Position numbers and translations under genes: made by a program
Part shown: piece by piece, positions 8,901-18,814 of the stretch
Layout of the letters: the number at the start of each line of letters is the position of its first letter
Position numbering within the stretch: position 1 is the first letter of the stretch
Notes under the pieces: generated by a model
What the model saw: the letters and a program-made list of their open reading frames with translations, nothing else
Databases searched by the model: none
What the model was told of the DNA's origin: nothing
Origin: Citreicoccus inhibens
GTDB lineage: Bacteria; Myxococcota; Myxococcia; Myxococcales; Myxococcaceae
NCBI RefSeq assembly: GCF_019039035.1
Contig: NZ_JAHNZT010000006.1
Span: 248,001-312,000 of the forward strand
Reading direction: 5' to 3'
Length of the DNA: 64,000 bases

Positions 8901-9881
8901 TCAGTCCTCGAACACCCGCTCGAGGACGACCAGGCGCTTGCTCCCTCCCGCCGCGTCCCATTCCTGGTTCGTGCGCTGGGTAAGCGAGGGCGGGGCCGGA
9001 CGAAAGCCCAGCCCGCGAAAAGTCCGCAGCGAGGCCGTGTTGTCCTCGTCGATGTCCGCCCGGACGCGGTCCGCGCCCTGCCGCCGCGCCTCGTCCAGCA
9101 GGCAGCGCACCAGCCCGGAGGCCACCCCCATCCGCCGCGCGCGGGGCGCCACCACCAGCGAGCGCACCCACAGGCCCTCCAGGGCCAGCCCCTCCTGCCG
9201 GTAGTCGTCCACCCAGGCGAAGCCGTGCAGGCGCCCCGAGTCGTCGAAGGCGCCGACCGCCGCTCCCGCGCGCTCCTCGGGCCTCAGCCCCCATCGCTCG
9301 CGAAGCTGGCGACGCAGGAAGCTGGCGGACACCACCAGCCCTTCGCCCGCGAAGACGAGCAGCGCGTCCAGGTCCTCCTCCCGCAACAGGCGCACCGACA
9401 GCGTCCCCACGAAGAGGCGCCGCAGCGGAAGCGACCAGCCGGAGAAGAAGAAGTCGCGCACGTGCCGGTAGACTACCCGGGCTCGGGGCCGCGCCCAGAT
9501 GGCGGAAAGGCCCCGGTGTGCCAGCCACAACGCGGGCCGGGAGGGCCGGGGCAACGGCAACACCACCCTCCCCCGCCGCACCGCCACCACGCGCCCGAGC
9601 GGCTCCCCCCCTGGCGGGTCCAGGTTCCCCAGCAACGACGCCGTCGTCCAAGGTTCGGTGGAGCACACCACGTGCGCGGTGAGCTGCCGCCCGCGCCGCA
9701 CCAGGGCCACGTCCCCGGGCGCCAGGGACTCCATGCCGCAGCGCTGCACCCGGACCGCGTCGCCGCTGCGCAGGAGCGGGTACAGGCTCCGCCCCGCGCC
9801 GCGCACCCAGAGGCGGTGGCCATGGGGCAGCGTGTCCAGCAGGTCCAGGAGGGCGTCAGCGGCCGGAGGCTGTCGTGCCAT
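8901..9881 (-). CDS. S24/S26 signal-peptidase-like domain fused to a GNAT acetyltransferase
   Basis: A 326-residue two-domain protein. Residues about 22-105 look like the S24/S26 peptidase fold: GRSLYPLLRSGD (Ser32, matching GxSMxP), LAPGDVALV, TAHVV (His70) and GRVVAV. The TKGD segment that supplies the Lys in LexA-like members reads SLLGNL here, so only a Ser/His arrangement is possible and activity is uncertain. Residues about 160-326 are a GNAT domain with the acetyl-CoA loop RARRMGVASGL and a late NTASLRTFRGLGF. The gene overlaps the HprK-like gene by 26 bp, so the two are translationally coupled. In context it could trim or acetylate the operon's 49-residue peptide; this is inference. 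Confidence 0.8.
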   Translation of the reverse strand: MARQPPAADALLDLLDTLPHGHRLWVRGAGRSLYPLLRSGDAVRVQRCGMESLAPGDVALVRRGRQLTAHVVCSTEPWTTASLLGNLDPPGGEPLGRVVAVRRGRVVLPLPRPSRPALWLAHRGLSAIWARPRARVVYRHVRDFFFSGWSLPLRRLFVGTLSVRLLREEDLDALLVFAGEGLVVSASFLRRQLRERWGLRPEERAGAAVGAFDDSGRLHGFAWVDDYRQEGLALEGLWVRSLVVAPRARRMGVASGLVRCLLDEARRQGADRVRADIDEDNTASLRTFRGLGFRPAPPSLTQRTNQEWDAAGGSKRLVVLERVFED

Positions 9882-10629
9882 GCGCCACCCACTCCGCGAG
9901 GAGGCCCGCCACCGCCACGTCCTTGCGGAAGGCGAGCCGGAAGCCCGGCACCTCGGCCACCACCGCGCCCACGGCGGTCAGCACCCGAGGCCCCGGCTCC
10001 AGGTCCGCCACCGCGCGGAACCGCTGGCCCAACAGCGCCGCGAGCAGCTCCGACGAGGCCACGGGCGTCAGCCGCTCGGTGGGGGCCTTCTCCAGCAAGA
10101 GCAGGGCGTGCGCGCGGGCCTCGGCGCGCGAGGCGGCCAGGTCCGGCTCGGACGAGAAGGGACTGCCCAGCACACGGCCCCCGGGCAACAGCGCCACCAG
10201 CTCATCCGACAGCAACGCCGCGCCTGCTTGGAGGCACAGCCGAGACAGGGTGGACTTGCCCGCGCCGCTCGGCCCCAGCGCCACGAGCGCCGCGTCCCCG
10301 AAGACCACGCCCGCGCCGTGGGCGCAGAAGCCGCCCTGACGCAGCACCGCGAGCTGGAACAGGGCGCGCAGGGCGAACTCGGCCGGGAAGGTGGAGAGCG
10401 GCGCGGAGGTGCGCAGCGTGTCCCGCTCCAGCGCGAAGCCACCGAGGTCGGGGCGCTCGCGTTGGAAGAGGTGCCCGCCCGGGCTCAACGCGTCGTCGCG
10501 CCGGAGCCACAGGGTGGGGCGGGACTCGGACCCCACGAGAAAGGGGCCCGCCTGACATCGCGGCCGCGCCGCGTCGAGGAGCGCGTCATCGACGTCACAG
10601 ACGCACTCGCCGATGCGCAGCCGCGCCAT
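9856..10629 (-). CDS. HprK-like serine kinase (peptide-cluster type)
   Basis: A 257-residue P-loop protein related to the C-terminal kinase domain of HPr kinase/phosphorylase. It has HGAGVVF (104-110), Walker A GPSGAGKST (119-127) and LLSDELVAL (139-147), equivalent to the second acidic motif of HprK. There is no HprK N-terminal domain and no PTS gene nearby. Homologues of this kind occur with PqqD-type proteins and small precursors; in paeninodin-type lasso clusters such a kinase phosphorylates the precursor C-terminus. The ATG at 10629 has gagg 8-11 bases upstream and sits 9 bp after the peptide gene. The likely substrate is the adjacent peptide, but that is inference. Confidence 0.85.
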   Translation of the reverse strand: MARLRIGECVCDVDDALLDAARPRCQAGPFLVGSESRPTLWLRRDDALSPGGHLFQRERPDLGGFALERDTLRTSAPLSTFPAEFALRALFQLAVLRQGGFCAHGAGVVFGDAALVALGPSGAGKSTLSRLCLQAGAALLSDELVALLPGGRVLGSPFSSEPDLAASRAEARAHALLLLEKAPTERLTPVASSELLAALLGQRFRAVADLEPGPRVLTAVGAVVAEVPGFRLAFRKDVAVAGLLAEWVAHGTTASGR

Positions 10630-10638
10630 GCCAGGTCC

Positions 10639-10788
10639 TCAGTTGCAGGCGGGGCGCGGATCGTAAACGGGGTCGCAGTCGAGCGGGCGGCTCACCGTGA
10701 ACAGGTCCGAGACGAGCAGCTTCTCGGACCGCACCTGGGGTGGGCGGTAGGGCTTCTTCTGGGACGGCGCCTTCGGTTCCGACCTCAT
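10639..10788 (-). CDS. 49-residue precursor-like peptide of a putative RiPP system
   Basis: A short gene encoding MRSEPKAPSQKKPYRPP onward, 49 residues. The Lys/Pro-rich first half contains Y14-x-x-P17-x-V19, like the YxxPxL leader motif read by PqqD-type recognition domains in lasso-peptide systems. The second half (from about T31) has Cys38 and Cys48, a DPxYDPRP stretch and a terminal Asn. The ATG has an aagggg site whose first bases overlap the TAA of the giant lipoprotein gene, ten bases upstream, showing tight coupling. It has no signal peptide. No lasso cyclase or transglutaminase-type leader protease lies next to it, so the final product is unknown. An alternative is a small structural partner of the lipoprotein. 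Confidence 0.72.
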   Translation of the reverse strand: MRSEPKAPSQKKPYRPPQVRSEKLLVSDLFTVSRPLDCDPVYDPRPACN

Positions 10789-10798
10789 GGGTGCCCCC

Positions 10799-13700
10799 TT
10801 AATACCAGACCGTGATCTTGCCCGGCGTGTCGAACGGGTCACCCGCCGCCACGTCCACGGCGCCGTCGCCGTTGAAGTCGCCCAGCGCCAGCCCCGAGCC
10901 GAGCGACTTGATGCCCTTGAAGCGCGCCTGCGCGAAGCCGTCTCCCGCCACGGCGTCGAAGGGCATGGGCCCCGAGGCGCCGTGGTACAGCACCCACACC
11001 GACGAGCCCGCCGTGGCGGCCTCGCTCACCACCAGGTCCGGCAGCGAGTCGCCGTTGAGGTCCGCGCTCGCCAGCACGTAGCCGAAGAAGCGCGCCCCGG
11101 ACACGCTGGCGTCATCCGCCACCTGGAGGCTGTAGGCCGGCTGCGCGCTGAACCCGGCCGTGGTGCCGTCCAGATAGAAGTTCACCCGGTTCACGCTCGG
11201 CTGGGACACCACGAGGTCCACCGCCGCCGTGCCTCCAAAGTTGCTGGCGCCCACCACGTCCACGCCGAAGCCGTTGGGGCCACCGCCGCCGGGAGCGCCC
11301 AGCGTCAGCGTCTGGAGCGCCTCGGTGGCGAGCAGCGTGCGGTCCGCCACGTTCGGTCCGGAGCGAGACAGCAGCAGGCTGCCCCGGAAGATGTAGACGA
11401 GGTTGAACTTGTCGTTGGGCACGGACAGGGACAGCTCAGGGTGTCCGTCGCCGTCCAGGTCGCCCACGCTCGCCTGTCCGCGCCGCCGGCCGAACAGCGT
11501 GGACGTCGCGGGCGTGATGGGGGCCTCGGTGCCCTCGATGATGCGGTCCGCCGAGTCCATGGGGATGAAGGGCACGTTGTCCGCTTCGTGTCCGGTCGCG
11601 ACGGCCAGCCAGTCCGCGCGCGAGCGCCCGAAGAAGAGGAACATGCGCCCGCGCCCGCCGTTCTCGCCGTCCGCGCTGAGCAGCACCTCACCCAGGCCGT
11701 CGCCGTTGAGGTCCGGGAGGATGCGCACGGCCCAGCCCAGGTTGGTGGCGCCGACGCCCGCGTGGCCTCGGAACTCCACCGGCGTGGGGTCCACCGGCTG
11801 ATTGGCCCGGCCGAAGTACAGGAACGCGCGGCCTCGGAACGCGGACCAGCGGGGCGAGCCGACCAGCACGTCCGGCCGCCGCTCGTTGGTCGCGTCGCCC
11901 ACGTTGCCCACGGCCACCTCGGTGCCGAAGTACTGCTGCGCCTCGGAGGTGGGCGGCAGCAGCACCTGCGGCGCGGCGCTCGCGTTGGTCGCGTCGTAGT
12001 AGATGTACACGCCGCCCATGTCCGCGGTGCCCGACGAGGCGTTTCGGAAGTTGCCCGCCACCAGGTCATCCCGGCCATCGCCGTTGAGGTCGCCGCTGGC
12101 GAGCGCCGAGCCGAAGATGCCCAGCGTCGCGGTGGGGTTGGTCAACGTCGTCGCGTGCGAGTTGACCAGCGCGGGGATGGTGCGCGGCTCGGAGAGGTTG
12201 CCCACCTCGTCGCGCGCGCGGACCTCGATGAAGTACGTGGCCAGCGGCGGCAGCGTGAGCCGCCGCGAGGTGTCGCTCGCGGGCAGCAGGCCGCCGGTCT
12301 CCTGCCGGACCTTGTTGCTGTACCACGTCGTCTCGTTCGGGATGCCGCCCGGCAGCTGCGTCTCGGTCGTCCACCGCAAGTCATAGCCGGCGGGCATGCC
12401 GGACACGCCGTCGTCGCCGCTGGCCGTCCACGCCACGTCCACCTGGGCCTTGCGCTCCGCGCCGCTGACGAGCGTGCGCGTCACCGAGACCTGCGCCGGG
12501 GGCACCACGTCCACCACCGCGGTCACCGTGCGCACCGCCGTGTTGCCGGCGCGGTCCCTCACACGAAGCTCCAGCGAGCCACTGGTGTCATGCGGCAGCA
12601 CCAGGCGCACCGTCTGCGGCTGCCCGTCCTGCGCCACGCTCGCCGAGGTGGAGACCGGCTGGCCCCGGTAGAAGAACTGGAACGCGCCGCCCACGGCCCC
12701 GGCCACCGTCACGTCGAAGTCCGCCTCGGCGTCGCCGCCCGGCGAGACGTCCTTCACGTAGCCCGCCTCGGGCGTGGGGAAGAGGTGCGCGTTGGACGCG
12801 GCCACGAAGGTGAGCTGGGTCGCGGGCGGAGACACCGTCGAGATGGTCGGCGGCGTGATGTCCACCGTGTAGTCGACGAAGTCGGAGGTGTGGTTGTTGT
12901 TGGCATCCACCATCTCCACGCTCAGGCGCCCTTGCTCGCCGTCCGCCAGCGTCACGGGGAAGGCGAAGTCGCCGGAGCTGGCGTTCGCGAGCGTGGTGCC
13001 CACCGCGACCGCCGGCGTGCCCTTGAGCAGCGACACGGTGCGGCCCGCGCAGCGCGTGGTGTGGCCGCGCACGGTGAACTGGAGCCCGGGCGTGCCCGGA
13101 GCCTCGTCGTCCGCTTGGATGAAGTCGCGCACGGCGTCCGCTGGTGAGGTGAGCGCCACGTCACAGCCCACCAGGTGGACATCCACCCCGGCGGCGCTGG
13201 CGGCGCCGCGGTTGCCCGCGGGGTCATCCACCTCCACCGTCACGTCCTGCCGTCCATCCGGGAAGTTGAGCGTCCCCAGGGCCACGCCCTGGGACACCGT
13301 CAGCGCGCCCACCTGGACGCGCGTGCCGCTCCCCTCGGGCGTCGAGTAGACGCGCGCGGTCAGCCCGTCTCCGCCCTGCACTGCCACGCGCACGGGGACG
13401 AGCGCCGAGTCGGACTGCTGGCCCGGAGTGGGGCTCTCCAGCGAGAGCACCGGCGCCTCCAGGTCCACCGTCACGGTGCGCGTCACCGCCGCGCTGGGGT
13501 TGCCCGCGGTGTCGCGAGCCGTGACAGTCAGCGTGTACGTCTGCGTGCCCGACGCCGGCACGGTGAAGTCATGCGTCACCGCGCGGCCCGAGGGCGTGAG
13601 CGACACCGGCGTGAGTCCTGGCTCCAGCGTGAAGAGGACGCCGTCCGCGCCCACGTCCGCGCTGGTCAACATGCTGACGCGGAGCTGGTAGCCCGAGGCC

Positions 13701-16681
13701 GTTGGATCCGCGTCCTGCGCGGGCCCCAGCGTGGCGCCCACCGCGGGCGCGCTGACGTTGACCGTGGGCGGCACGCGGTCCACGCGGAAGTCCGTCAGCG
13801 CCGCCGCGTTGAGCGGATCCAACGGGTTGGGCGGGTTGGCCGGCACCGTGCGGTTCACGTTGCCCACCGTGTCCGTGAGCACCACCACGAGCGACGCATC
13901 CGCCTCGGAGAGCGAGGCCAGCGCCGTGAGGGTGACGTCCGTCCGCGAGCCCGTGGAGGCCGCCTGTCCCAGGAGCGCGAGCGACCGCGCGTCACGCACC
14001 TGCACGGGCCGCCCATGCTCCAGCCCCGTGGTGGACACGCGCACCACCGGCGCGCCGCTGGGAGACTCAGCCAGGTTCAGGATGCGGTCGCCGTTGGCGT
14101 CCCCGACGAACTCGAGCGCCGTCACCTCCGGACGCGAGCCGTCCACGCGCAGCGTCACCGGCGCGGACTCGGCCGTGCGGCCCGCGTCATCCAGCACCAC
14201 CTTCAGCGAGTACTGACCATCCGGGTACGAGAAGCGTGTGGTGTCCGGCGGCAGCGACGACGCCAGGGTGAACCAGCCGCTGCCATCACGGCACGGCGTG
14301 CGGTCCACGGTGAGCGCGATGTCCGTGCACACGTCCACCACGGCCGACGACGACGCGCCGTTGAGCGTGAAGGACAATGGGCGCTGGATGCCCGGCGTGG
14401 CGGGATCCTGGTCCTCGTTCAGCGAGTACTGCGTGGAGGCCCCCGGCGCGGTGAGCGCGATGGCCTCGGGCGTGGTGTCCAGCGTGTAGAGCGCGCTGGC
14501 GCAGGCCCCGGCGCCCGCGGTGTTGGTGAGCACCGCGCGCAACACGTTGACGCCCTCGCGCAGCGTCACGGCCGTGAACGTCTTCTTCACCTCCGCGGAG
14601 GCCACGTCCATCGAGCCCACCTCCGTGGTGTCGCGGTACAGCTTCAGCACGCCCGAGACGCCCTCGCCGAACGCGAGCGTCATGGGCACCGACAGCCCAC
14701 CCGTCACCGCCGTGCCGTCCGCGGGGCCCAGCGTCCGATTCGGATCCGGCGCCGAGAACGACAGCGAGGACTGCGCGAAGGCGGACGCCACCGCCACCGT
14801 CTGCGTGGCTGAGTTGCCCGCGGGGTCCACCGCGCGCACCGTCAGGGTGCACGTCCCCGTCGCCGGGATGGAGATGCCGCGCAGCGTGGCCACTCCCGCG
14901 CCGTTGGCGACCGCGGACGCGGTGCCCGTCAGGCCACAGCCATCCACGAACACCTGCGCATCCGCGTCCGTCGTCACGTCCAGCACCACCTGCATGCCGG
15001 GCAGCACGGACGTGTCGACGAAGTCCGCCCCGATGCGGCCGTCCACCGCGTCACGCACGGTGGCCGTCAGCGCGGGCTTCGCCGTGTCGCGCCGCGAGAC
15101 GATGCGCTGGCTGCGCCCGCCGCCCGCGCACGAGGCCACCAAACTCCAGGCCCCATCCTGGGTCAGCGGCGCGGTGAGCGTCGCGGCGCCACCCGAGGCC
15201 GTGGCGGACACGCTGGTGGCCGTGCCGTCCGGCGCCACCTGCGCCAGCGTCACCGCGCCGTTGGGCGCATCCACGCGGACCGCCACCGAGTTGCCCGTGA
15301 CGAACTCGCGCGCGGCCGGCTCCACGATGCGGCAGGTGGAGCGCCCCATCTGCACGGACACCGTCGTGGGCTGCGAGCAGGTCTGCAGGCCCGCTGAATT
15401 GCGCACACACGCCTTCACGGTGTTGGCGCCCTCGGCCAGGTCCAACTGGAACGCCGCCACCCGGTCCGCGCCGCTCGCCACCGTCGCCACGCGCAGCGGC
15501 TGCCCCAGCCGGCTCGTCACCGTGGTCCACAGCTCCACGTCCGTGCCCACCGGCAGCCCGTTCACCTTCACGCTCGCCGGCGCCTGCACACCGTCCGCGG
15601 CGTCGCCGTTGGCATCGCTCGTCACCACCGCGGGCACGTCCAACGTGAGCACCGGCACCGCGCTCGCGACCACCACCTGAAGGGGCTGCTCGGTGACGTT
15701 GCCGCCCGAGTCCGTCAACCGCAGCCGGAAGTCGAAGGTGCCATCCCCCGGCACGGTGACGGCGGTGAACGTCACGGCGCCGGCGCGCACCTGCGTCTGC
15801 ACCGCGTCCGCGCCCTCGCGCGACAACACCGCCGTGCTGCCATCCTCCACCGAGCGCACCACCGCCACCACGTCGAAGGTGGGGCTGGCCACCGGAGCCA
15901 CCGGCGAGGCCACCACCAGCCGGGGCGCCTCGGTGTCCAGCGTGAAGCCGCGCGGCGCGGACGTCACGTCGCCCGTGGCCCGCTTGAGCACCGCGGTGCA
16001 GCGCGCGAGCTGCGCCTCCCGCACGGGCTCGGTGAGCGTGGCCACCACGGTGGCGCTGCCGTCCTGGCCCAGCGTGAAGGGCACGGGCGCAAGTCCGCAC
16101 ACGCCCGCGCACGAGAGGAGGCCGCTGGCGCCGCGCAGCGCGGTGCCCTTCAGCCCGAAGCGAACCTGATAGCCCGGCGTGGCGGGGTCGGCGTCATCCA
16201 CCTCGCGCAGCACCTGCCCCTCGGCGGGCGAGGTGAGGTCCACGCTGGGCACCTCGGTGCCCACCGCCACGGAGACCGTCTGCGTGGCCGTTCGCCGCGA
16301 GCCCGACTCCTCCACCGTCACGCGCAGCACGCTGGTGCGCAGCGGCAGCGTGACCGACGCGAAGCGCACCTTGGCGCCTTCGATGCGCGCGGCCGGTCCC
16401 GCGGTCCAGGTCTGCTCACTGCCGGCGCGCACCTCCAGCTTCGCGCTCGCGAGCGTCACCTCGCGGCCCGCCGTGTCGCGGCCCACCGCCACCACGTCCT
16501 GCTGGAAGCCATCCGTGCCGGGGTCCGCATCCTCGTCGAGCGCCAGCCGCTGCCCGTCCGTGGGGGACTCGAAGGCCACCGCGAGCTGTGACTCGACGGG
16601 CGGCTCGCCGCCGCAGGAACACCCGGAGATCCACACCGCGGCCATCGCCGCCAGCAAGCCAGTCCAAGTCGCTCGATGCAT
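10799..16681 (-). CDS. Giant lipoprotein with Ig-like repeats, Fn3-like domain and FG-GAP propeller (1960 aa)
   Basis: The signal peptide ends in ISGCS, giving lipidated Cys21, so the protein is probably displayed on the outer membrane. Residues from about 30 to 1400 are tandem Ig-like (Big/CARDB-type) beta-sandwich modules. At least six begin with a repeated acidic motif of the form SPxxGxxLxxxxDADPxTxGxQ, for example at residues about 32-54 and 150-172. An Fn3-like module follows. The last about 420 residues hold about seven FG-GAP/integrin-alpha blades with Ca2+-binding loops such as DLNGDGRDDLVAG, DLDGDGHPEL and DFNGDGAVDVAAG, which would form a seven-bladed propeller. The start at 16681 is fixed by the signal peptide; longer frames add shadow sequence. 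It lies 5 bp after the PqqD gene, and the peptide gene follows ten bases after its stop. Confidence 0.9.
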   Translation of the reverse strand: MHRATWTGLLAAMAAVWISGCSCGGEPPVESQLAVAFESPTDGQRLALDEDADPGTDGFQQDVVAVGRDTAGREVTLASAKLEVRAGSEQTWTAGPAARIEGAKVRFASVTLPLRTSVLRVTVEESGSRRTATQTVSVAVGTEVPSVDLTSPAEGQVLREVDDADPATPGYQVRFGLKGTALRGASGLLSCAGVCGLAPVPFTLGQDGSATVVATLTEPVREAQLARCTAVLKRATGDVTSAPRGFTLDTEAPRLVVASPVAPVASPTFDVVAVVRSVEDGSTAVLSREGADAVQTQVRAGAVTFTAVTVPGDGTFDFRLRLTDSGGNVTEQPLQVVVASAVPVLTLDVPAVVTSDANGDAADGVQAPASVKVNGLPVGTDVELWTTVTSRLGQPLRVATVASGADRVAAFQLDLAEGANTVKACVRNSAGLQTCSQPTTVSVQMGRSTCRIVEPAAREFVTGNSVAVRVDAPNGAVTLAQVAPDGTATSVSATASGGAATLTAPLTQDGAWSLVASCAGGGRSQRIVSRRDTAKPALTATVRDAVDGRIGADFVDTSVLPGMQVVLDVTTDADAQVFVDGCGLTGTASAVANGAGVATLRGISIPATGTCTLTVRAVDPAGNSATQTVAVASAFAQSSLSFSAPDPNRTLGPADGTAVTGGLSVPMTLAFGEGVSGVLKLYRDTTEVGSMDVASAEVKKTFTAVTLREGVNVLRAVLTNTAGAGACASALYTLDTTPEAIALTAPGASTQYSLNEDQDPATPGIQRPLSFTLNGASSSAVVDVCTDIALTVDRTPCRDGSGWFTLASSLPPDTTRFSYPDGQYSLKVVLDDAGRTAESAPVTLRVDGSRPEVTALEFVGDANGDRILNLAESPSGAPVVRVSTTGLEHGRPVQVRDARSLALLGQAASTGSRTDVTLTALASLSEADASLVVVLTDTVGNVNRTVPANPPNPLDPLNAAALTDFRVDRVPPTVNVSAPAVGATLGPAQDADPTASGYQLRVSMLTSADVGADGVLFTLEPGLTPVSLTPSGRAVTHDFTVPASGTQTYTLTVTARDTAGNPSAAVTRTVTVDLEAPVLSLESPTPGQQSDSALVPVRVAVQGGDGLTARVYSTPEGSGTRVQVGALTVSQGVALGTLNFPDGRQDVTVEVDDPAGNRGAASAAGVDVHLVGCDVALTSPADAVRDFIQADDEAPGTPGLQFTVRGHTTRCAGRTVSLLKGTPAVAVGTTLANASSGDFAFPVTLADGEQGRLSVEMVDANNNHTSDFVDYTVDITPPTISTVSPPATQLTFVAASNAHLFPTPEAGYVKDVSPGGDAEADFDVTVAGAVGGAFQFFYRGQPVSTSASVAQDGQPQTVRLVLPHDTSGSLELRVRDRAGNTAVRTVTAVVDVVPPAQVSVTRTLVSGAERKAQVDVAWTASGDDGVSGMPAGYDLRWTTETQLPGGIPNETTWYSNKVRQETGGLLPASDTSRRLTLPPLATYFIEVRARDEVGNLSEPRTIPALVNSHATTLTNPTATLGIFGSALASGDLNGDGRDDLVAGNFRNASSGTADMGGVYIYYDATNASAAPQVLLPPTSEAQQYFGTEVAVGNVGDATNERRPDVLVGSPRWSAFRGRAFLYFGRANQPVDPTPVEFRGHAGVGATNLGWAVRILPDLNGDGLGEVLLSADGENGGRGRMFLFFGRSRADWLAVATGHEADNVPFIPMDSADRIIEGTEAPITPATSTLFGRRRGQASVGDLDGDGHPELSLSVPNDKFNLVYIFRGSLLLSRSGPNVADRTLLATEALQTLTLGAPGGGGPNGFGVDVVGASNFGGTAAVDLVVSQPSVNRVNFYLDGTTAGFSAQPAYSLQVADDASVSGARFFGYVLASADLNGDSLPDLVVSEAATAGSSVWVLYHGASGPMPFDAVAGDGFAQARFKGIKSLGSGLALGDFNGDGAVDVAAGDPFDTPGKITVWY

Positions 16682-16686
16682 GCCCG

Positions 16687-17019
16687 TCACTCCTTGCGTC
16701 GAAGTGGGGACCCGGTTCCCCTCGCCGCGAGCACCAACACCTGCCGCTCCACCAGGAGCGCCACGAAGCGCGCCGTGTCCTGACGACATAGCGCTGGATC
16801 CACGTCGAACTCCTCGCACAGCTGCCGCGAGATGTCCTCCACCGAGCGCTCGCCATCCGCCAGCTCCAGGATGCGCTCAGCGACCTCGGAGGCCCCCGCG
16901 TCATCCTCGAAGGTGTGGAGGAACGTCTCCCCCGGCCCCAGGACCGAGAGCACGCCCCGCGAGCGCACGGAGACGGCGTCGGGGTGCAGTCGGGGCACCG
17001 CGCTCAGCCAGTCGTCCAT
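16687..17019 (-). CDS. PqqD-like RiPP recognition protein
   Basis: A 110-residue protein with the PqqD winged-helix pattern: PRLHPDAVSVRSRG at the start, a strand reading VLSVLGPGE, then AERILELADGERSVEDISRQL and a final FVALLVERQVLVLAARG. PqqD-like proteins bind leader peptides and hand them to modifying enzymes. It heads the operon of lipoprotein, peptide, kinase and S24/S26-GNAT genes, all within 26 bp of one another, so its natural ligand is probably the YxxPxV segment of the 49-residue peptide. No radical-SAM enzyme or other PQQ gene is in the window, which argues against PQQ synthesis. Confidence 0.85.
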   Translation of the reverse strand: MDDWLSAVPRLHPDAVSVRSRGVLSVLGPGETFLHTFEDDAGASEVAERILELADGERSVEDISRQLCEEFDVDPALCRQDTARFVALLVERQVLVLAARGTGSPLRRKE

Positions 17020-17848: not shown

Positions 17849-18814
17849 CTACTTGAGGCCGTGGATGGCCTGGCGCAGCGCGGGGAGCACCTTGAAGAGG
17901 TCCTCCACCAGCCCGTAGTCCGCCACCTGGAAGATGGGGGCCTCCGGGTCCTTGTTGATGGCCACGATGGTCTTCGAGCTCTTCATGCCCGCCAGATGCT
18001 GGATGGCGCCGCTGATGCCCGCCGCGATGTACAGCTGCGGAGCGACGACCTTGCCCGTCTGGCCGACCTGCAAGTCGTTGGGAACCCAGCCGGCGTCGCA
18101 CACCGCGCGCGAGGCACCGACGGCGGCGCCGAGTTCATCGGCCAGCGCCTCGATCTCCTTGAAGTCACCCTTGGTGCCGCGACCACCGGACACCACCACG
18201 CGCGCCTCGGTCAGCTCGGGGCGGGCGCTCTTCACTTCCTTGAAGTCGACGAACTTCGTCTTGGAGGCCTCGACCTTCGCGGCGAAGGTCTTCACCTCGG
18301 CGGCGCCCTGGCCCGTCGCGGCGGCAGGGAACTCCGTGGCGCGCACGGTGAACACCTTCACCGGCGTGGTGAGCTTCACCTCGGCGAAGACGTTGCCGGC
18401 CCACATGGGGCGCGTGAACGTGACGTCCGCGCCCGAGCCGTTGATGGCCATGACGTCGGTGGCCATGGCGGCCTTGAGGCGAGCGGCCACGCGCGGCATC
18501 AGGTCCTTGCCCTGCGCCGTGGAGGCCATGCCCACGTAGTCCGCCTTCAGCTCCTGCGCGAGCGCCGCGATGGCGGGCGCGTAGGTCTCGGCGAGGTAGT
18601 GCTCGAACTCGGGGGCGGCGGCGGTGTGGACCGCCTTGGCGCCGGTGCCCTTGAGCTCCTCGGCCAGCTTCGCGGGGTCCTTGGCGAGCAGCACCAGGTG
18701 CAGCTCCGCGCCGGCCTTGTCGGCCAGGGCCTTGCCCGCGGAGATGGCGTTGAGGGAGGCCTTGCGCAGGTTCCCGTCCGGCTGCTGCTCGGCGACGATG
18801 AGAACGATTGGCAT
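17849..18814 (-). CDS. etfA: Electron transfer flavoprotein alpha subunit
   Basis: Carries FAD and passes electrons from acyl-CoA dehydrogenases to the quinone pool. The 321-residue protein has an N-terminal alpha/beta domain ([17 protein letters not shown]). The conserved C-terminal FAD domain is clear: [23 protein letters not shown] spans the signature (read it from about residue 255), then [16 protein letters not shown]. The length is typical. It lies 55 bp downstream of etfB on the same strand, with acd further upstream, giving the order acd-etfB-etfA. Confidence 0.97.

What the first reader, a model, noticed from the sequence alone, without database searches (positions are those of the whole stretch)
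10639..10788. Precursor-like peptide with YxxPxV leader motif and two cysteines in the C-terminal part
The motif resembles the leader segment that RRE/PqqD domains read in lasso systems. The C-terminal half (Cys38, Cys48, DPxYDPRP, final Asn) would suit a macrocycle or disulfide. The Shine-Dalgarno site overlaps the upstream stop codon, showing that translation is deliberate and coupled.
Basis: partly seen in the sequence, partly recalled or inferred. Interest (0 to 1): 0.75.

Follow-up and report, generated by a model that had tools for sequence, protein, structure and literature searches.

The report
Phosphopeptide precursor beside a propeller lipoprotein
This tiny gene very probably encodes the precursor of a peptide that the cell phosphorylates and trims, a kind of system so far described only in Bacillota (the Bacillus group), but here kept at the same chromosomal place in distant myxobacteria and tied to a large surface propeller protein of unknown purpose.

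Summary
The ORF is real. It lies on the MINUS strand (10788-10639, 49 aa), inside a five-gene operon: PqqD-type leader-binding protein, 1,960-aa FG-GAP/Ig lipoprotein, peptide, HprK-like kinase, S26-type peptidase fused to an acetyltransferase. Relatives in other families and classes of the phylum keep a YxxPxV leader and a variable, mostly Cys-containing tail. Ser/Thr stands 18-19 residues after the Tyr in 38 of 46 distinct peptides (11.3 expected), where BsfK and LppK are published to phosphorylate their precursors. No lasso cyclase lies within 16 kb in 38 genomes searched. The parts match the core of the linear polyphosphorylated peptides (LPPs; Nat Commun, May 2026), which the authors call restricted to Bacillota. 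Differences: no NTP transferase or transporter gene in the cassette, an acetyltransferase fused to the peptidase, vertical inheritance at a fixed site beside etfA, and a beta-propeller gene directly upstream of the peptide in 42 of 46 cases. In eight relatives lacking the peptide, the RRE, propeller, peptide and kinase genes are all gone from the site. Phosphorylation, cleavage and the propeller's role are inferred. Verdict: new variant of a known kind.

The parts
16687..17019 (-). Discrete RRE, PqqD family (110 aa, P0003); Asp81/Phe85 at the leader-reading positions
   Evidence: PF05402 E 1.7e-11; invariant D81, F85 in 17 rows; PDB profile hits PqqD, TbiB1, PbaB1, TfuB1, LppB; profile matches BsfB1
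10799..16681 (-). FG-GAP beta-propeller / Ig-like-repeat protein, about 1960 aa, with a lipoprotein-like N terminus (ISGC lipobox, recalled motif)
   Evidence: translation; PF01839 E 5.6e-21, PF19077 E 4.9e-18; FG-GAP gene directly upstream of the peptide also in 36 of the 45 other peptide loci (35, L146)
10639..10788 (-). Precursor peptide gene, 49 aa: leader 1-30 (YxxPxV = 14-19), predicted core 31-49 TVSRPLDCDPVYDPRPACN with candidate phosphosite S33
   Evidence: The leader/core border is inferred by analogy, not shown
10794..10801 (-). Shine-Dalgarno-like run overlapping the FG-GAP stop codon (translational coupling inferred)
9856..10629 (-). HprK-like kinase (257 aa, P0004)
   Evidence: invariant H104, G124, K125, S126, D142, E143; model pLDDT 92.2; Foldseek matches to PEPCK and HprK/P; family profile matches BsfK, E 3.3e-12 at Z=1000
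8901..9881 (-). S26/S24-type peptidase domain (about residues 1-110; S32, H70, D88) fused to a GNAT acetyltransferase domain (about 160-326) (P0005)
   Evidence: PF00583 E 1.4e-13; S32/H70/D88 invariant in 17 rows; profile hits SEC11A E 0.0023, LexA E 0.05; model pLDDT 87.6; GNAT part Z 15.6-17.5 in the 50 rows shown
17849..18814 (-). Flanking gene, not part of the system: electron transfer flavoprotein alpha (name recalled, etfA); fixed left neighbour of the cassette
   Evidence: match in 20 of 61 stretches; 8 of 8 sites lacking the cassette core

Best explanation
The gene encodes the precursor of an LPP-like RiPP: a linear phosphopeptide. Steps: (1) the PqqD-type RRE binds the Y14xxP17xV19 leader segment; (2) the HprK-like kinase, presented with the RRE-bound precursor, phosphorylates Ser33 (core residue 3); (3) the S26-type serine peptidase domain removes the leader, most likely after Phe30, releasing TVSRPLDCDPVYDPRPACN; (4) the fused GNAT domain may acetylate the new N terminus; (5) the two Cys may close a disulfide after export. 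The co-encoded FG-GAP lipoprotein belongs to the same unit, probably as the surface partner of the peptide. Shown here: operon, conservation, motif spacing, intact catalytic residues, folds, joint absence from the site. Inferred by analogy with BsfK/BsfB1 (PMC10368454) and LppK/LppB/LppS (PMC13381572): steps 1-3. Speculative: steps 4-5, the route of export, and the propeller's role.
For: Same operon order in relatives: in the 16 f1 loci with a peptide that were fetched, PqqD, HprK and an S24/S26 match are all present, with FG-GAP directly before the peptide in the 15 of them tested. Anchoring on Tyr gives an ungapped leader with invariant Pro at +3 in all 33 peptides. Ser/Thr at Tyr+18/+19 in 38 of 46 peptides against 11.3 expected, and in 21 of 27 sequence clusters against 7.3 (p<=5e-5, shuffles). 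BsfA Ser3 is Tyr+19 and LppA S3 is Tyr+18 (papers read; both sites shown by mutation there). Kinase residues conserved, fold PEPCK/HprK, profile similarity to BsfK and BsfB1. Peptidase S32/H70/D88 invariant, in the order of LppS S29/H68/D93. No cyclase within 16 kb in 38 genomes. At the site beside etfA in 8 relatives without the peptide, RRE, FG-GAP, peptide and kinase are all absent. Purifying selection.
Against: No biochemistry; no mature product is known, nor was one identified for LPP or Bsf by their authors. 8 of 46 peptides lack Ser/Thr at Tyr+18/+19. The window's RRE profile scores PqqD, TbiB1 and PbaB1 better than LppB (E 0.06), so membership of the LPP clade is not shown. The Walker B pair is Asp-Glu, not the Asp-Asp of BsfK. 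The cassette has no NTP transferase and no transporter gene. Four relatives keep the peptidase-GNAT gene alone at the site, so it may not be dedicated to this peptide. Seven HprK relatives have no YxxP peptide within 900 nt upstream (L116, L117, L119, L120, L122, L124, L125), so this kinase branch has other contexts. BsfA is not matched by the peptide profile.
Confidence: 0.78

Rival explanations
1. A lasso peptide: the core is cyclised by an unlinked Asn-synthase-like cyclase acting in trans, with D37 (core Asp7) as acceptor.
For: Leader, RRE and kinase are those of phosphorylated lasso systems such as bsf of Bradymonas; an Asp stands at core position 7 here; the genome holds three PF00733 matches elsewhere.
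Against: No PF00733 match within 16 kb of any cassette in 38 genomes. No B2-like PF13471 match in the own genome above the cut-off (22.4 bits in a 1412-aa frame). The acceptor is not conserved at one position. An S26-type peptidase stands where B2 would.
Confidence: 0.04
2. A RiPP with the same leader reading and trimming but another main chemistry (for example unlinked oxidative or radical SAM modification of the tail), the kinase being accessory, regulatory or a non-kinase.
For: Deep relatives have a radical SAM gene in the cassette (L132, L133; L137, L140, L141, L149); tails are variable and Cys-rich; 8 of 46 peptides lack the Ser/Thr.
Against: No such gene in the window cassette; the kinase is the constant neighbour; its ATP/Mg residues are invariant.
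Confidence: 0.12
3. Not a natural product but a small subunit that the cassette attaches to or assembles with the FG-GAP lipoprotein: the phosphopeptide as part of a surface structure or as its ligand.
For: A propeller gene directly precedes the peptide gene in 42 of 46 loci (FG-GAP: window, 35 loci, L146; PQQ/BamB-type: L134, L135, L136, L143, L144). Vertical inheritance at a fixed site and joint absence with the propeller are unlike patchy antibiotic clusters. Not exclusive of the best explanation.
Against: No physical interaction tested; four radical-SAM-type loci lack the propeller; tails are too variable for one fixed binding surface unless partner and peptide co-vary, which was not tested.
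Confidence: 0.3
4. An untranslated or translation-coupling spacer ORF with no peptide product.
For: It sits in the short gap between two genes; the upstream stop overlaps the Shine-Dalgarno-like run.
Against: Purifying selection on amino acids, a 20-residue motif with fixed spacing across families, and loci where peptide and kinase are kilobases apart (L118, L121, L123).
Confidence: 0.03

Closest known systems
Linear polyphosphorylated peptides (LPP; lppA-K-B-S-D-N of Paenibacillus alginolyticus, PMC13381572, Nat Commun 2026)
   Same: YxxPxV leader, variable C terminus, discrete RRE with the Asp/Phe pair, HprK-like kinase, Ser/Thr at core position 3 (Tyr+18 there, +19 here), Ser-His-Asp archaeal-type signal peptidase as leader peptidase, no cyclase
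   Different: No LppN-type NTP transferase and no MsbA-like transporter gene in the cassette; GNAT fused to the peptidase; FG-GAP lipoprotein between RRE and peptide; leader tail RSEKLLVSDLF instead of LxHQxIxFET; two Cys in a short 19-residue core; fixed-site vertical inheritance in Myxococcota, whereas the authors describe a patchy Bacillota distribution with frequent gain and loss
Bsf lasso cluster of Bradymonas sediminis (PMC10368454)
   Same: HprK-like kinase on core Ser3 with RRE stimulation, Tyr-to-Ser distance 19, YxxPxL leader; an FG-GAP gene borders the cluster (the authors presume it is not involved)
   Different: Bsf has a cyclase (bsfC), a cysteine peptidase B2, an ABC transporter and a nucleotidyltransferase; none of these is in the window cassette
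Paeninodin-type phosphorylated lasso peptides (as summarised in PMC10368454 and PMC13381572)
   Same: HprK-like kinase and discrete RRE
   Different: WxxP leader read through Gln/Glu; C-terminal Ser phosphorylated; macrolactam ring
S26B-type signal peptidases (SEC11/SipW)
   Same: GxSMxPxL...GD...H motifs; profile hit to SEC11A
   Different: Fused to GNAT; presumed cytosolic (not tested)

Membership tests
LPP | Precursor with YxxPxV leader and variable C terminus | tested here: met
   33 of 33 anchored peptides have Tyr/Trp and Pro at +3; tails differ
LPP | Discrete RRE reading Tyr through an Asp (LppB D70) and Pro through a Phe (F74) | tested here: met
   D81 and F85 invariant in 17 rows; LppB and PbaB1 letters compared. 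Equivalence by sequence spacing, not by structure
LPP | HprK-like kinase present with catalytic residues | tested here: met
   Asp-Glu instead of Asp-Asp
LPP | Phosphorylation of core Ser3 | not testable with these tools
   Only the position is conserved: S33 here; Ser/Thr in 38 of 46
LPP | Archaeal-type (Ser-His-Asp) signal-peptidase-like leader peptidase | tested here: met
   S32, H70, D88 invariant in 17 rows, S32 in 13 of 14 in the wider set (L132 has Cys); profile hit SEC11A E 0.0023. Leader cleavage itself not tested
LPP | No macrolactam cyclase | tested here: met
   no PF00733 match within 16 kb of a cassette in 38 genomes
LPP | Co-occurring NTP transferase (LppN) | tested here: not met
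   PF14907 matches exist in 37 of 38 genomes but none within 20 kb of the cassette; the own-genome ones are on contigs C101 and C29, not C90. The paper gives it as part of the conserved set; its deletion there did not change the products
LPP | Co-occurring MsbA-like transporter (LppD) | tested here: inconclusive
   No transporter gene lies between 8901 and 17019; ABC families were not searched genome-wide
LPP | RRE in the LPP clade | tested here: inconclusive
   No tree with LppB was made; the profile prefers PqqD, TbiB1 and PbaB1 to LppB. For this reason, and because the NTP transferase is missing, it is filed as LPP-like, not as a member
Lasso peptide | Cyclase C (Asn synthase-like) in the locus | tested here: not met
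Lasso peptide | Leader peptidase B2 (transglutaminase-like) | tested here: not met
   21 genomes; own best 22.4 bits (cut-off 26) in a 1412-aa frame; six genomes over the cut-off, best 27.8 bits, none at the cassette
RRE-dependent RiPP | RRE, short precursor with conserved leader and variable core, modifying enzyme in one operon | tested here: met
NCBIfam HprK-related kinase A (TIGR04352) | Score over the curated cut-off (200 bits) | tested here: not met
   22.5 bits

The most novel reading that the evidence does not exclude
Myxococcota carry an old, vertically inherited system in which a phosphopeptide and a large surface beta-propeller lipoprotein are one functional pair: the peptide is made, phosphorylated and trimmed to dock on, mature or gate its integrin-like partner. 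The Bradymonas lasso cluster, with the FG-GAP gene presumed uninvolved, and the Bacillota LPPs would then be offshoots that lost or replaced the propeller.
Probability: 0.3. Interest if true: 0.82.

Novelty: new variant of a known kind. Interest (0 to 1): 0.6.

Why it matters
The LPP family was reported in May 2026 as restricted to Bacillota, with no known biological role. A Myxococcota version that is inherited vertically at one site, and that was lost there together with a giant propeller lipoprotein, suggests a stable physiological job rather than an antibiotic, and gives that job a testable partner. It also bears on the FG-GAP gene beside the Bradymonas bsf cluster, which its authors presumed irrelevant, and adds a natural peptidase-acetyltransferase fusion to RiPP enzymology.

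Tried and rejected
Lasso reading: rejected. Match in G007 (L018/L035): it lies in a 437-aa frame with no partner genes; dropped. Weak peptide matches (41 of 195 genomes at E<=0.05) were not taken as such; only those with a kinase or FG-GAP neighbour were used. NCBIfam and Pfam hold no family for the window peptide; five further peptides gave no NCBIfam match either. Viral collection: no relative. A genome-contig scan gave only three named relatives (Archangium lansinium, Hyalangium versicolor, Archangium violaceum), probably because the pattern was narrow. Fold search of the fused protein was filled by the GNAT half, so the peptidase half rests on motifs, a weak Pfam hit to the S24 family (E 0.24) and a weak profile hit. 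No RRE tree was made. Papers: PMC10368454 parts 1-4 of 6 read; PMC13381572 sections 6-9, 11, 12, 35 and found passages read; PMC7470986 and PMC12710340 passages only; the others seen as search listings. That no Myxococcota version is in print rests on the searches in this open-access library only.

Full report
WHAT IS THERE. The frame is on the minus strand, 10788-10639, 49 aa. The operon, in order, is PqqD-type RRE (17019-16687), FG-GAP/Ig lipoprotein (16681-10799), peptide, HprK-like kinase (10629-9856) and S26-type peptidase fused to GNAT (9881-8901, overlapping the kinase gene). The FG-GAP stop codon overlaps the peptide's AAGGGGG Shine-Dalgarno-like run. The window lies in a 9.05-Mb genome that is not named. 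Three relatives found by the same peptide are Archangium lansinium, Hyalangium versicolor and Archangium violaceum.

CONSERVATION. With the single sequence, 18 of 144 related genomes match; one of these (G007) is false. With a profile, 21 of 145 match. In all 16 true f1 loci fetched, PqqD, kinase and peptidase matches are present in the same order. More distant families (G086, G094, G093, G098, G159 and others) also have FG-GAP, then peptide, then kinase. Selection is purifying: 13 synonymous against 0 non-synonymous core differences in 7 non-independent comparisons; the only difference from G001 is synonymous.

THE PEPTIDE FAMILY. Anchored on the leader Tyr, 33 peptides align without gaps: a mostly basic pair at -20/-19, Tyr (or Trp) at -17, invariant Pro at -14, aliphatic or Ala at -12. 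The tail varies; 42 of 46 tails have two or more Cys, 3 none. Ser/Thr at Tyr+18 or +19 occurs in 38 of 46 (11.3 expected from shuffles of each peptide's residues after the motif) and in 21 of 27 clusters (7.3 expected), p<=5e-5. Some peptides were found by a profile covering this region and others by motif and place only, so the test is not fully independent. The 8 exceptions include L114, L115, L118, L121, L127 and L128.

KINASE. H104, G124, K125, S126, D142 and E143 are invariant in 18 sequences. The corresponding BsfK set is H148, G163, G166, G168, K169, S170, D186, D187 (PMC10368454), so the second Asp is Glu here. The model has pLDDT 92.2 and matches PEPCK and HprK/P (best Z 13.6, rmsd 4.7, 233 aligned, to PEPCK; HprK/P in the Foldseek list). 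The family profile matches BsfK with E 3.3e-12 at a nominal database of 1000.

PEPTIDASE. S32, H70 and D88 are invariant in 17 sequences; in a wider set including stand-alone relatives S32 is Cys once (L132) and H70 and D88 are invariant. The profile hits human SEC11A (E 0.0023) and LexA (E 0.05). The GNAT half matches N-terminal acetyltransferases among many others; it is absent or degenerate in some relatives (L032, L113) and absent from the stand-alone peptidase of L059, so it is an addition, not a core part.

RRE. PF05402 E 1.7e-11. D81 and F85, invariant in 17 rows, have the spacing of LppB D70 and F74 and of the BsfB1 Asp/Phe, whereas PbaB1, which reads WxxP, has Gln at the Asp position.

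PROPELLER. A propeller gene directly precedes the peptide gene in 42 of 46 loci: FG-GAP in 37 (window; 35 loci, overlap of up to 32 nt to gap of 37 nt; L146), PQQ/BamB-type in 5 (L134, L135, L136, L143, L144). In the other four (L137, L140, L141, L149) a radical SAM gene precedes it. In L132 and L133 a radical SAM gene sits after the kinase.

FIXED SITE AND JOINT ABSENCE. The etfA homologue flanks the cassette in 20 of 61 stretches examined (these include type-2 and other loci and one false locus), among them loci of another family (L131, L132) and another class-level relative (L142). In 8 genomes lacking the peptide, taken from 9 searched for etfA (one not fetched), none of RRE, FG-GAP, peptide or kinase is left at the site; 4 of the 8 (L166-L169) keep the peptidase-GNAT gene, 4 keep none. 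The first four genes thus go together; the retained peptidase is a result against its being dedicated to this peptide.

AGAINST. Seven kinase relatives lack a YxxP peptide within 900 nt upstream. In three others the peptide follows FG-GAP but stands kilobases from the kinase (L118, L121, L123). The RRE profile does not favour LppB. No NTP transferase lies near the cassette.

COMPARISON WITH THE KNOWN. PMC13381572 (sections read) describes LPPs: RRE LppB, kinase LppK on core S3, peptidase LppS (S29/H68/D93), NTP transferase, transporter, no cyclase; the authors state that LPPs are restricted to Bacillota and patchily distributed. PMC10368454 shows BsfK phosphorylating core Ser3 with RRE help in a Bradymonas lasso cluster bordered by an FG-GAP gene presumed uninvolved. 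The window cassette has the LPP core parts with the extra features above, so I file it as a new, LPP-like variant; it works like an LPP, while descent from the same RRE clade is not shown.

WHAT IS SHOWN AND WHAT IS NOT. Shown: gene reality, operon, conservation, motif spacing, catalytic residues, folds, fixed site, joint absence. Inferred: leader binding, phosphorylation of S33, cleavage after F30. Guesses: acetylation, disulfide, export route, propeller partnership.

Noticed in passing
L134:9858-15225 (own genome, contig C46): A second, paralogous cassette in the same genome: S24-type peptidase, PqqD, PQQ/BamB-type propeller protein, peptide ending YTPPAILWEQPFVALAQTSMCTIPGESECVP, HprK-like kinase. 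Related cassettes in L135, L136, L143 and L144.
   Followed up: partly
L137, L140, L141, L149: A third layout: radical SAM enzyme directly before a YxxP peptide with a Cys-Lys and Gly-rich tail ending in GS, then the HprK-like kinase; a PqqD domain lies upstream in the stretch.
   Followed up: partly
L166-L169 (G023, G031, G048, G063), at the site beside etfA: The peptidase-GNAT fusion gene survives alone (64-72% identity to the window's) after the rest of the cassette is gone, so it probably has another substrate there.
   Followed up: partly
G000:C101:93749-95582: Two tandem NTP_transf_5 (PF14907) genes in the own genome, the kind of enzyme expected for an LppN-type nucleotidyltransferase; their context was not examined.
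   Followed up: no
L132:11273-11767: In this stand-alone S26-type peptidase the nucleophile position reads Cys (GACMWP) instead of Ser.
   Followed up: no
L117, L119, L122, L124, L125: Kinase relatives of this branch that sit next to a gene other than FG-GAP or a YxxP peptide; substrate unknown.
   Followed up: no
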